64,000 bases of DNA from Hymenobacter negativus. Lineage in GTDB: Bacteria > Bacteroidota > Bacteroidia > Cytophagales > Hymenobacteraceae. Every line of letters begins with the position of its first letter. Position 1 is the first letter of the stretch. Under the pieces are notes generated by a model. It did not search any database and was not told the origin of the DNA. It worked only from the letters and a program-made list of their open reading frames with translations. Where the stretch lies: positions 310,001 through 374,000 of the forward strand of contig NZ_JAEDAE010000002.1 of the NCBI RefSeq assembly GCF_016056375.1. The letters are read 5' to 3'. The position numbers and the translations under genes are program-made. Shown here piece by piece: positions 30,057-63,703 of this stretch.

Positions 30057-30157
30057 GTCATCCTGAGCGTAGCGAAGGACCTTATTACGCTTGCACGGTT
30101 TAGCGTTACTGCAAATCGTCCGGTCGTGATAAGGTCCTTCGCCACGCTCAGGATGAC
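30057..30157. repeat. Long-armed inverted repeat, GTCATCCTGAGC type
   Basis: The left arm (30057-30089) and right arm (30125-30157) are 33 bases each and pair with two mismatches across a 35-base loop. The arm begins GTCATCCTGAGCGTAGCGAA. It fills most of the adk-obgE gap. A second copy of the same type lies before dnaJ (32407-32499). Confidence 0.88.
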
Positions 30158-30186
30158 CGTTTTTTTACCTTAATACCCCAACCCCC

Positions 30187-31248
30187 GTGGCCTCCAATAA
30201 CTTCATCGACTACGTCAAACTCATCTGCCGCTCGGGCAAAGGCGGTGCCGGCTCGCACCACTTCTTCCGGGCCAAAGGCCTGCCCAACGGCGGCCCCGAC
30301 GGCGGCGACGGCGGCCGCGGTGGCCACATCATCCTCGAAGGCAACTCGCAGCTCTGGACGCTGCTGCACCTGCAGTACCAGAAGCACGTATTTGCCAAAG
30401 ATGGCGAGGGCGGGGGCGAAAACCTGCGCAGCGGCGCGCAGGGCGAAGACATTGTGCTGCAAGTGCCCCTCGGCACCGTGGCCCGCGACGCCGCCACCGG
30501 CGAGCAGCTGCTCGAAATCACGGAGCACGGCCAGCGCCTCATCCTCGTGCCTGGCGGACGCGGTGGCTGGGGCAACGACCATTTCAAGAACTCCATCAAC
30601 CAGGCCCCGCAGTACGCGCAGCCCGGCGAGCCGGCCGTGGAGGCCATTATCATCTTGGAGCTGAAGCTGCTGGCCGACGTGGGCCTCGTGGGCTTCCCCA
30701 ACGCGGGCAAGAGCACGCTGCTCTCGGTGGTGTCGGCCGCCAAGCCCAAGATTGCCGACTACGCCTTCACCACCCTCGTGCCCAACCTAGGCGTGGTGGC
30801 CTACCGCGACTACAAATCCTTCGTGATGGCCGACATTCCCGGCATCATCGAGGGCGCGGCCGAAGGCAAGGGCCTGGGCACCCGCTTCCTGCGCCACATC
30901 GAGCGCAACTCCATGCTGCTCTTCATGATAAGCTGCGACTCACCCGACATCAATGCCGAATACGACGTGCTGGTGGGCGAGCTGGAGCAATTCAACCCCG
31001 AGCTACTGGAAAAGAAGCGCCTGCTGGCCATTACCAAGTCCGACATGATTGACGAGGAGCTGGAGGCCGAAATCCGCGCCACGCTGCCGGAAGAAGTACC
31101 CGCCATTTTCATTTCCAGCCTCACGAATAAGAACATCGTGCCGCTGAAAGACATGATTTGGAAGGCATTAGAAGAAACCCGTCGCGACGCTGCGCCAACC
31201 AAACGCCAAGGACTTGGCGAAGAAGGCCAGGAAGAATGGCCCGCTTAA
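30187..31248 (+). CDS. obgE: GTPase ObgE/CgtA
   Basis: The 353-residue protein begins at GTG 30187. The N-terminal Obg domain has glycine-rich loops (GKGGAGSHHF, PDGGDGGRGG, GGRGGWGNDHF). The G domain starts at about residue 160, with G1 GFPNAGKST at 169-177, a DIPGIIEGA G3 and a TKSD G4. ObgE assists 50S ribosome assembly and stress control. No C-terminal OCT domain is present; a short variable tail follows. Length fits the family. Confidence 0.96.
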   Translation: MASNNFIDYVKLICRSGKGGAGSHHFFRAKGLPNGGPDGGDGGRGGHIILEGNSQLWTLLHLQYQKHVFAKDGEGGGENLRSGAQGEDIVLQVPLGTVARDAATGEQLLEITEHGQRLILVPGGRGGWGNDHFKNSINQAPQYAQPGEPAVEAIIILELKLLADVGLVGFPNAGKSTLLSVVSAAKPKIADYAFTTLVPNLGVVAYRDYKSFVMADIPGIIEGAAEGKGLGTRFLRHIERNSMLLFMISCDSPDINAEYDVLVGELEQFNPELLEKKRLLAITKSDMIDEELEAEIRATLPEEVPAIFISSLTNKNIVPLKDMIWKALEETRRDAAPTKRQGLGEEGQEEWPA

Positions 31249-31261
31249 GGCGGTCTGATTT

Positions 31262-31618
31262 TTAGCTTGCCTGTTGGTTGAGTAAGTGCGCGTAAATCAG
31301 TTCGGGGTCTTGTTGCGTGTGATAGTTGAAATGCAGGTAAAGGGCGCCGTTGCTGAATTTTAATTTTTGCTGCACGGATTCTTCTCCTTGCAACATCTTA
31401 GGTTCAGGCCATTGTTGGGCTATGACAGCTACTGTGGTGGAAGAAGTAGCTGACCAAGTTGCTTTGCCACCAGCAATTGAGGCCAAGTAGTTGGAGTGGA
31501 AAACATGGCGTATAATTTCCTCAATACTTGCGGAGTCGTGGAGAGTTACTATTCTTTCATGCGGTGCATCGCAGTCGTCGCTCATGGCAACACTGTCGCG
31601 TGTCAAACGAATTTCCAT
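31262..31618 (-). CDS. Hypothetical protein
   Basis: The 118-residue product has no family I recognise. It is soluble and acidic in the first third, and holds a pattern IEEIIRHVFHSNYLASIAGGKATWS (partly quoted: EEIIRHVFHSNYLASI). It sits on the opposite strand between obgE and grpE, converging with obgE across 13 bases. It has ordinary codon use and no overlap with other genes, so it is probably real. No signal peptide or membrane segment. Confidence 0.6.
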   Translation of the reverse strand: MEIRLTRDSVAMSDDCDAPHERIVTLHDSASIEEIIRHVFHSNYLASIAGGKATWSATSSTTVAVIAQQWPEPKMLQGEESVQQKLKFSNGALYLHFNYHTQQDPELIYAHLLNQQAS

Positions 31619-31788
31619 GGATGAAAGGAATAATACCGAGGCAAGTTAAACCCACTCCAAAGAGAAACCACTGCCCTGTTACTCGTGCCACTATGGCAGC
31701 CCGCGCCCCTTTGGCCCACTCCTTGCGCCCGCAACTTGACTAACCGGCTAACCCCGTGAAAAACCCCTTTCGACGAATATTTCCGCAG

Positions 31789-61972: not shown

Positions 61973-62003
61973 GCGTAATGCTTCGACTACGCTTAGCATT
62001 ACG
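61973..62003. repeat. Small hairpin between coaC and coaB
   Basis: GCGTAATGCT (61973-61982) pairs with AGCATTACG (61995-62003) around a 12-base loop. It contains TAA and TAG codons in the CoaC/CoaB frame. Confidence 0.7.
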
Positions 62004-62044
62004 TTCTTTGGGTTCGTTTTCCCTCAATCCACATTAGATAGTTG

Positions 62045-62695
62045 ATGCACGTTCTCCTCACGGCCGGCCCCACCTACGAACCGCTCGACCCCGTCCGCTT
62101 CCTCGGCAACCGCTCAACGGGCAAAATGGGCTATGCGCTGGCCGAAGCCTTTGCCGCGCATGGTGCCGACGTGACGCTGGTGAGCGGCCCCAGCCAGCTG
62201 CCGGACCCCGCCAACCCGCGCATCCGCACGGTGCGGGTGGAAACGGCGGCAGAAATGTTTGCCGCGGCGTCTGAAGTAGCGGATAAGGCCGACGTGTGGG
62301 TGTTCGCGGCGGCTGTGGCCGACTACCGACCGGCCCACGTGGCCGTCGATAAAATCAAGAAATCAGGCGAAAAGCTGACGCTGGAGCTGGTGAAAAACGT
62401 GGACATTGCTGCCACGCTCGGCCAGCGCAAGCGGGCTGAACAATTTGCCGTCGGTTTTGCGTTGGAGACTACGAACGAGCTGGCCCACGCCCAGGACAAG
62501 CTGCGCCGAAAAAACTTCGACCTCATCGTGCTCAATTCCCTGCGCGACGCGGGCGCGGGTTTCGGCCACGACACCAACAAGGTGACCGTGCTGGATGCCG
62601 CCGGCCAAATCGTTAATTTTGAGTTGCAGTCCAAAGCCGACGTGGCCCGCGGACTGGTTAGCCTGATTCTGGCCCCTCTGGCCCCTTCCTCATGA
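62045..62695 (+). CDS. coaB: Phosphopantothenate-cysteine ligase (CoaB half of CoaBC)
   Basis: The ATG at 62045 gives 216 residues; a TTG three bases upstream is an alternative. It starts at VLLTAGPTYEPLDPVRFLGNRSTGKMGYA, the CoaB nucleotide site (in part: TAGPTYEPLDPVRFLGNRST). AAAVADYRP and the KIKKSGEKLTLELVKNVDI dimer/loop block follow. It joins cysteine to phosphopantothenate using CTP or ATP. It is in the same reading frame as coaC, separated by 72 bases with four stops. The stop overlaps the DUF4835 start. Confidence 0.9.
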   Translation: MHVLLTAGPTYEPLDPVRFLGNRSTGKMGYALAEAFAAHGADVTLVSGPSQLPDPANPRIRTVRVETAAEMFAAASEVADKADVWVFAAAVADYRPAHVAVDKIKKSGEKLTLELVKNVDIAATLGQRKRAEQFAVGFALETTNELAHAQDKLRRKNFDLIVLNSLRDAGAGFGHDTNKVTVLDAAGQIVNFELQSKADVARGLVSLILAPLAPSS

Positions 62696-63615
62696 TGCGA
62701 AAATTCCTCGCGGTGCTGCCCGTATTTGCCCTGCTACTGCTGGCCGGCCCCGCTGCCCGTGCCCAGGAACTGTCGGCCGAAGTGCGCGTATCGACCGAAA
62801 ACGTGACGATTTCGGACCCCACCATCGTCACGCAGATGCAGAACGACATCCGCACCTTCCTCAACAACCGGGCGTGGACCACCCAAACCTACCGCCCCGA
62901 GGAACGAATTCGGCTGAAGATTTTTGTCGGCATCACGGCCATCCCGCAAAATGGCACCTACAACACCACCATGCGCCTGATTTCGACACGCCCGGTGTAC
63001 GGCACCGGCTACGAAACCAACGTGGTGAGCATCGTGGACCGCAGCTTCAACTTCAATTATTCGCCGCAAAACCCGCTGGATTTTTCGCCCAACAGCTTCG
63101 TTTCCAACCTGTCGTCGCTGCTGGGGTATTATGCCTACCTCGTCATCGGCATTGACCGCGACACGTATGCCCGGCTGGGCGGCACGCCGTACTACGAGCT
63201 GGCCCGCAACGTGGTCAACTACTCGGCCAACCAGACGCAGACCAACGAAACCGATGAGGGCTGGCGCGGCAGCGGCTCACGCGAGCGTCACTTTATCCTC
63301 GACAACCTGACCGACCCGCAGCTCGAAGCCTTCCGCACGGGGTTGTACAGCTATTACCGCCAGGGCATGGACATCTTCATCGAAAAGCCCGAAGAAGCCC
63401 GCACCTCGGTAATGGCTGCATTGACAGGCGTGCAGAAAGCCGCCCTCACGCGCCCCGGAACCTTATTTGCCCGGGCCTTTTTCGATGCGAAGTCGGATGA
63501 AATTGCCAACATCTTCCGCACCAGTCAGGACCAGCAGCAGAAGCAGCAGCTTGTGACCATGCTCACGGAAGTAGACCCGACGAATTCGGCCAAATATCAA
63601 ACGGTACTTAAGTAA
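62692..63615 (+). CDS. DUF4835 secreted protein
   Basis: The 307-residue protein has a signal peptide (FLAVLPVFALLLLAGPAARAQ). Start is one of two adjacent ATG codons (62692 or 62695), overlapping the coaB stop. Conserved-looking features are LSAEVRVSTENVTISDPTIV, YSPQNPLDFSPNSFVSNL and YLVIGIDRDTYARLGG. The family is confined to Bacteroidota and has no known activity; it usually lies between coaBC and recN, as here. Periplasmic location is inferred from the signal peptide. Confidence 0.88.
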   Translation: MMRKFLAVLPVFALLLLAGPAARAQELSAEVRVSTENVTISDPTIVTQMQNDIRTFLNNRAWTTQTYRPEERIRLKIFVGITAIPQNGTYNTTMRLISTRPVYGTGYETNVVSIVDRSFNFNYSPQNPLDFSPNSFVSNLSSLLGYYAYLVIGIDRDTYARLGGTPYYELARNVVNYSANQTQTNETDEGWRGSGSRERHFILDNLTDPQLEAFRTGLYSYYRQGMDIFIEKPEEARTSVMAALTGVQKAALTRPGTLFARAFFDAKSDEIANIFRTSQDQQQKQQLVTMLTEVDPTNSAKYQTVLK

Positions 63616-63703
63616 ATTATGAGTTATTAATTATGAATTATGAGTTGCCGCTTGGGTGATTTTCTAATTCATAATTCATAATTCAACACTCATAATTAAT
63701 TAT
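63616..63703. repeat. AT-rich inverted repeat (AATTATGAATTATGAG type)
   Basis: The arms at about 63616-63649 and 63666-63703 consist of AATTATGA-like units and pair with small gaps around a GC-richer centre. It ends one base before the recN ATG. Its AT richness stands out against the surrounding GC-rich DNA. Confidence 0.8.

What the first reader, a model, noticed from the sequence alone, without database searches (positions are those of the whole stretch)
30057..63703. About ten long-armed inverted repeats of several types in gaps from 30 kb on, none in the glycan cluster
Repeats at 30057, 32407, 37508, 42146, 43238, 48972, 51289, 61317, 61973 and 63616 share a plan: two long arms (up to 47 bases, few mismatches) around a loop. 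Several share a GTCAT start and a GAGCG-AGCG core. Arm pairs are much more similar to each other than the types are among themselves. In the first 28 kb no such element was seen, although several gaps there are long enough. The window has no transposase for them. They could be REP/MITE-like elements moved by a distant transposase, or RNA/DNA structural sites.
Basis: partly seen in the sequence, partly recalled or inferred. Interest (0 to 1): 0.72.

Follow-up and report, generated by a model that had tools for sequence, protein, structure and literature searches.

The report
Repeat doublets with self-matching arms
Most of the long inverted repeats in this window are copies of short palindromic DNA repeats that occur in about a hundred to over two hundred copies in this Hymenobacter-type genome; in four of six sets tested the two arms of one copy match each other better than they match other copies, likely because one arm is copied onto the other during replication rather than because a dedicated transposase keeps spreading them.

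Summary
Eight of the ten sites are REP-type repeats; 48972 and 63616 are other palindromes. Seven carry or derive from a GTCAT-tagged unit, whose commonest core occurs 211 times in this genome and in 120 of 120 genomes of the genus. They fit the published CGTC-tagged REP class, for which no transposase was known. The eighth, 51289, is a GTAG-tagged REP; the one intact RAYT gene found in the genome is flanked by the same repeat.

The GTCAT doublets sit in fixed gaps: adk-obg carries one across much of the genus, other gaps hold different repeat families, or none, in different species. In four of six sets the arms of a doublet match each other better than other doublets. Where spacers show common descent, changes recur in both arms. 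Mismatches show no G.U excess (39 vs 35 A.C), so RNA-stem selection is not evident. I favour arm-to-arm template switching plus occasional replacement of whole doublets. Two doublets, identical or nearly so between species but inverted, lie in older-looking flanks, so mobility is not excluded. The glycan cluster is a species-variable locus, nearly free of these repeats in relatives too.

The parts
30057..30157 (.). GTCAT doublet, CCT stem type, in the adk-obg gap; followed by a T tract
   Evidence: slot shared with 10 of 13 relatives
32411..32495 (.). GTCAT doublet, CCT stem type, in the grpE-dnaJ gap
   Evidence: DNA fold -40.2 kcal/mol, z -11.9
37510..37609 (.). GTCAT doublet with GCG stem, arms partly diverged
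42146..42172 (.). Remnant of a CCT doublet, likely an internal deletion between AGGA repeats
   Evidence: full doublets in the same gap in 6 of 12 relatives
43240..43432 (.). GTCAT doublet, TGC stem type, long spacer that holds a terminator-like hairpin (about 43309-43342)
51289..51356 (.). GTAG-tagged REP doublet; same repeat flanks the RAYT gene of the genome (outside the window, G000:C12:157542-158060)
   Evidence: gap is 43-45 bp in 5 of 6 relatives
61317..61401 (.). GTCAT doublet, TCC stem type, in the gap between an Rpb6/omega-like gene and coaC
61973..62003 (.). Remnant of a GTCAT doublet in the coaC-coaB gap, tag changed to GTAAT on both sides

Best explanation
The GTCAT elements are genome-wide, head-to-head REP doublets that fit the CGTC-tagged class and sit in inherited gaps, and their two arms are likely kept identical by one arm being copied onto the other at the replication fork (template switching), so that the hairpin would last without a dedicated transposase. 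Shown: copy number, head-to-head plan, arms matched within a doublet in four of six sets, shared slots, both-arm changes where the spacer shows descent. Inferred: that template switching does the copying; that whole doublets are also replaced now and then by copies from elsewhere, in either orientation; that internal deletion leaves the short remnants. The 51289 element is separate: a GTAG-tagged doublet whose likely mobiliser is the RAYT gene found in the genome.
For: Own CCT doublets: the loop base agrees between arms in 33 of 37, shuffles 20.4, 0 of 5000 as high. Arms nearer to their partner than to other doublets in four of six sets, 0 of 2000 shuffles each. In G007 the loops agree in 20 of 29 doublets against 4.6 expected, 0 of 5000; four loops occur in both arms of one doublet and nowhere else among the 86 arms listed. 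At adk-obg, G103 and G091 share a homologous spacer and differ at two arm positions, each changed in both arms. Over 45 same-slot pairs with homologous spacers in 10 slots, 72 positions changed alike in both arms (pairs are not independent, and one loop indel in slot 1 inflates the count). Sense-strand mismatches G.T 39, A.C 35: no RNA-type asymmetry. Arm homogenisation and spacer inversion by template switching are described in yeast (PMC8604942, abstract and passages) and for RNA genes (PMC8794818, abstract and outline).
Against: One-arm changes are more numerous (163 against 72, plus 28 others). TGC doublets show no concert in relatives and mostly one-arm changes. Two doublets that are inverted between species are identical or nearly so (1.00, 0.98) while the 60-bp flanks match only 0.72-0.84, which suggests movement or exchange of the whole doublet; one of those spacers also occurs elsewhere in G039. 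Gaps that are empty in some relatives imply gains or losses. Different families share slots in 137 of 283 pairs. Some doublets have two different loops. No mutation was observed directly.
Confidence: 0.5

Rival explanations
1. The doublets are REPIN-like mobile units, moved in trans by a transposase not recognised here or now lost; arms match because both come from one master copy.
For: About 200 copies, shared head-to-head plan; two doublets look younger than their flanks; near copies of their spacers sit elsewhere; empty gaps in some relatives; REPINs are moved as doublets in Pseudomonas according to PMC3116915 (passages).
Against: No Y1 gene framed by GTCAT repeats in 50 loci of relatives; the RAYT found here has GTAG repeats; weak relation of Y1 and GTCAT counts; both-arm changes where the spacer is inherited; loops private to one doublet.
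Confidence: 0.25
2. Only recombination among copies and between species: doublets are overwritten by other doublets (gene conversion, allele exchange), which carries both arms along.
For: The grpE-dnaJ doublet is identical in G103 and G020 inside a tract of 0.94-1.00 identity that falls to 0.89; mixed-loop doublets in G007 and G025; family switches within a slot, 137 of 283 pairs.
Against: Loops found only in both arms of a single doublet of G007 have no donor among the 86 arms listed there; adk-obg spacers diverge with the species while arms change together.
Confidence: 0.12
3. Selection on an RNA hairpin (terminator or 3' end stabiliser) keeps the arms paired by compensatory change, whatever the family in the slot.
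For: Doublets lie a median 16 nt after the upstream stop in co-directional gaps; a T tract follows the 30057 doublet; one gap, coaC-coaB, has a long inverted repeat of several kinds in 10 of 15 Hymenobacteraceae loci.
Against: G.U is no commoner than A.C among sense-strand mismatches (39 vs 35); TTTT on the right side in only 10 of 37 and AAAA on the left in 14 of 37; a grpE-dnaJ gap of 32-34 bp without any repeat in 4 of 14 species; no Rfam match.
Confidence: 0.1

Closest known systems
CGTC-tagged REPs (Di Nocera et al. 2013, PMC3733652; first of eight parts and passages read)
   Same: Tag written there as CGTC, TGTC or CCTC; stem starting with A and T; head-to-head dimers predominate; five phyla including Bacteroidetes; no transposase gene flanked by them.
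   Different: Here a GA-GC-NNN-GC-GA core with mostly GNA loops, stems and tails that I could not hold against the paper's figure (figures are not held); orthologous slots, arm concert and spacer orientation were not treated in the passages I saw.
GTAG REPs and REPINs with RAYT genes (PMC3116915, PMC3733652, PMC6006769: passages)
   Same: 51289 and its RAYT fit this plan; the GTCAT doublets share the doublet plan.
   Different: GTCAT doublets lack the GTAG tag and a flanking RAYT.
Template switching at inverted repeats (PMC8604942 passages, PMC8794818 abstract and outline)
   Same: Arms made alike, spacers inverted.
   Different: Described there in yeast genes and RNA genes; here a bacterial repeat family, and the inverted spacers come with younger-looking doublets, so they are not clean evidence.

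Membership tests
CGTC-tagged REP | CGTC/TGTC/CCTC tag at one end | tested here: met
   Units read tGTCAT or cGTCAT in the own doublets listed
CGTC-tagged REP | Stem of 8-9 bp with A and T first, loop 4-5 | tested here: inconclusive
   A,T follow the tag, but the core folds as a short stem, GA mismatches and a triloop; the paper's figure was not available
CGTC-tagged REP | Head-to-head dimers predominate | tested here: met
   37 doublets in the own loci read (part of these loci were picked because two arms were listed, so the share is not a fair estimate)
CGTC-tagged REP | No dedicated transposase gene flanked by the repeat | tested here: met
   Y1 genes only: 0 of 50 loci framed; own RAYT has GTAG repeats
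GTAG REP/REPIN with RAYT (51289) | GTAG tag, hairpin, many copies, RAYT flanked by the same repeat | tested here: met
   51+44 copies, control 0; fold -9 kcal/mol, z -9.7; L170; NF047646 at 56 bits, under its cut-off of 80
REPIN (for the GTCAT doublets) | Mobilised as a unit by a cognate RAYT | tested here: not met
   No cognate RAYT among the loci read; movement itself not testable here
MITE | Derived from an autonomous element with the same terminal repeats | tested here: inconclusive
   Only Y1 genes were looked for; other transposase classes were not searched
Intrinsic terminator | GC-rich stem followed by a T tract | tested here: inconclusive
   TTTT right in 10 of 37, AAAA left in 14 of 37

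The most novel reading that the evidence does not exclude
CGTC-class REP doublets are replication-maintained palindromes rather than transposons: template switching perfects their arms, flips their spacers and turns their families over within old gaps, which is why no transposase for them has been found.
Probability: 0.25. Interest if true: 0.75.

Novelty: new variant of a known kind. Interest (0 to 1): 0.52.

Why it matters
The 2013 survey left open how CGTC REPs persist without a transposase. This genus offers 120 genomes with 1 to 616 matches to one core pattern and orthologous slots where arm correction, spacer orientation and family switching can be counted on a tree, so the question becomes directly testable. 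It also warns that paired changes in long stems need not mean RNA selection.

Tried and rejected
PF01797 alone found no Y1 gene in the genome; a profile of 13 relatives' RAYTs then found one intact gene and a 78-aa fragment, so that first negative and a notebook line were wrong.

Extra complementarity of the outer flanks was weak (117 vs 96.6, 18 of 2000 shuffles as high). Gene orientation around doublets gave no firm bias (my own simple gene caller). Spacer inversion was first read as a clean mark of template switching (over 146 same-stem pairs 28 clear direct, 13 clear inverted, 105 unclear); the flanks showed the two clearest cases to be younger than their surroundings, so it is now only compatible. 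One search picked a wrong left arm in three species (G066, G025, G099); its totals are not used. One search selected doublets by arm match and was replaced; the mismatch test still uses that selected set (116 doublets, 89 with known strand). A density of doublets mixed two detectors and two sets of genomes; one search replaces it. I asked whether a repeat had split coaBC: the gene is also split in the four Pontibacter and one Adhaeribacter loci looked at, without a long repeat, so no. Rfam has no match in the window.

Literature: no paper in the library holds both 'repetitive extragenic palindrom' and 'template switch', or that term and 'Hymenobacter'; literal GTCAT core strings occur in 18 papers, none about such repeats by title. 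Searches were seen as listings. The library holds open-licence papers only. Not done: non-Y1 transposase families, structure prediction, a genus-wide slot count.
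Full report
What the sites are. The window lies at G000:C12:310001-374000 of a 5.14 Mb genome. The genus is read as Hymenobacter from named records of near relatives; the contig length of H. cyanobacteriorum contig4, 851974, equals that of contig C9 of the relative G020. Seven of the ten listed sites carry or derive from a GTCAT-tagged unit: five doublets (30057, 32411, 37510, 43240, 61317) and two remnants (42146, 61973). One is a GTAG-tagged doublet (51289). The other two are a leader palindrome (48972) and an A/T-rich palindrome (63616).

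Copy number. GTCATCCTGAGCGNAGCGAAGGACCT with up to two mismatches occurs 97+97 times in this genome, reversed control 0. GTCATKNNGAGNNNAGCGNNG occurs 62+59 times, control 0. GTCATNNNGAGCNNNGCGANG occurs 100+111 times here and in 120 of 120 genomes of the genus, 1 to 616 per genome, control 0 or 1 per genome; it occurs in 117 of 395 genomes drawn from the phylum, four of the 117 being of this genus. The GTAG type occurs 51+44 times here and in 99 of 120 genomes.

Anatomy. A unit reads GTC, AT, three stem bases, then GA-GC-NNN-GC-GA and the stem's other side. Among arms of that form the triloop is GNA in 75 of 76 own and 89 of 100 relatives' arms. GNA triloops closed by GC are known as very stable DNA mini-hairpins; that is recalled, and one search was seen as a listing only. 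Yet four single units tested fold no better than their shuffles, while the doublet at 32411 folds at -40.2 kcal/mol (z -11.9) and the GTAG unit alone at -9 (z -9.7). In 37 own CCT doublets the arms pair in at least 33 of 37 copies at each of the first 29 positions; the spacer beyond differs from copy to copy.

Transposase. PF01797 finds no Y1 gene here, while 83 of 120 congeners have a match. A profile of 13 congener RAYTs finds one intact gene at C12:157542-158060, in a 217-aa open frame with an HVH motif, and one 78-aa fragment; NCBIfam REP_Tyr_transpos matches it at 56 bits, under its cut-off of 80. The repeat GTAGAGACGCAATATTTTGCGTCTC stands on both sides of it: the type of window site 51289. 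Of congener Y1 genes I read 50 loci, 30 returned as the best and 20 chosen from weaker hits. Several RAYTs are framed by palindromes of other kinds. GTCATnnnnAGC occurs somewhere in 8 of the 50 loci, twice inside the reading frame and otherwise about 0.3 kb or more from the matched domain; in none does it frame the gene. Y1 number and GTCAT number are hardly related (Spearman 0.15, P 0.09).

Slots. Orthologous gaps were read in up to 13 relatives, chosen by Obg likeness and synteny out of 119. The adk-obg gap has a CCT doublet in 11 of 14 species including this one. Of 20 further congeners I read, by eye, 11 with a CCT unit, 5 with the outer stem but another inside, and 4 with other palindromes or none. 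The grpE-dnaJ gap holds CCT in 4, GCT in 4, GCA in 1, another palindrome in 1, and is only 32-34 bp in 4 of 14 species. The 42146 gap has doublets in 6, remnants in 2 and none in 5 of 13. The 51289 gap is 43-45 bp in 5 of 6 relatives; the sixth has a different GTAG doublet. Among 106 doublets of 14 species, 17 slots are shared by two or more species; 146 of 283 same-slot pairs have the same stem type, 137 a different one. In the coaC-coaB gap 10 of 15 Hymenobacteraceae loci have a long inverted repeat, of several unrelated kinds, against 0 of 5 Pontibacter and Adhaeribacter; a control stretch inside coaB has a short GC-rich one in 2 of 20.

Arm concert. With only the first eight bases required to agree, within-doublet differences lie below between-doublet ones for the own CCT and the relatives' GCT, CCT and GCC sets, but not for TGC (n=6), and GCA (n=8) cannot tell. 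G007 has four loops found in both arms of a single doublet and in no other of its 86 listed arms. Among 45 same-slot pairs with homologous spacers in 10 slots, 72 positions changed alike in both arms, 163 in one arm, 28 otherwise; arms differ from their own partner at 1.39 and from the orthologue's partner at 2.76 of 18 positions; six of the seven TGC-type pairs have no both-arm change. Sense-strand mismatches are G.T 39, A.C 35, A.G 9, C.T 9, G.G 8, A.A 7, C.C 7, T.T 1: no sign of G.U tolerance. This points to the DNA level.

Inversion and replacement. In the 61317 slot the doublets of G039 and G043 are exact reverse complements; in another slot those of G066 and G056 nearly so. The first spacer occurs exactly once in G039 and once in G043, with near copies elsewhere; the second occurs exactly once in G066 and once in G056, and also once elsewhere in G039. 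But the 60-bp flanks match only 0.72-0.84, so the doublets look younger than their surroundings. At grpE-dnaJ, G103 and G020 share an identical doublet inside a tract of high identity, as exchange between species would leave. The gene tree puts G020 beside the window's genome, not beside G103, which agrees with exchange.

Why none in the glycan cluster. Most of window 3-20 kb has no homologous DNA in the 20-39 kb read in the same place in nine relatives; G020, G033 and G043 keep parts. These sides carry 2 GTCAT doublets in 312 kb against 75 in 620 kb of the same nine relatives on the other side. A recently exchanged locus without old slots would explain this; that is inference.

Verdict. REP doublets of a known kind, with an unusual and testable way of staying symmetric. 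Template switching is my choice among mechanisms; unit mobility by an unseen transposase remains a real rival.

Noticed in passing
   Followed up: no
48889-49207: Conserved 320-bp gap ahead of a mutL-like gene with TAnnTTTG motifs on both strands (a Bacteroidota promoter motif, recalled); its palindrome at 48972 is perfect over 16 bases here, while relatives keep only the inner part.
   Followed up: partly
61397-62692: coaC and coaB are separate genes here and in the Hymenobacteraceae loci looked at, but fused in the Spirosoma, Roseivirga, Bacteroides and other loci looked at (34 of 80 fetched loci examined).
   Followed up: yes
L131 and L133, grpE-dnaJ gap: The 136-bp gap is identical in G103 and G020 although coding flanks farther out match at 0.89: likely allele exchange between species.
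   Followed up: partly
L061-L080: RAYT genes of congeners are framed by several unrelated palindromes (such as GGTAAGCTTTAGCTTGCC and GTAGCGCGAAGCTCCGGCTTCGCG); the first also sits in the coaC-coaB gap of L215 and L216.
   Followed up: partly
G025, listing: A GTCAT subfamily with a 42-base unit whose triloop is replaced by a longer stem-loop, in doublets with itself or with short-loop arms.
   Followed up: no
G000:C18:58345-58479 (L171): A 78-aa fragment that matches the RAYT profile: likely a decayed second RAYT.
   Followed up: no
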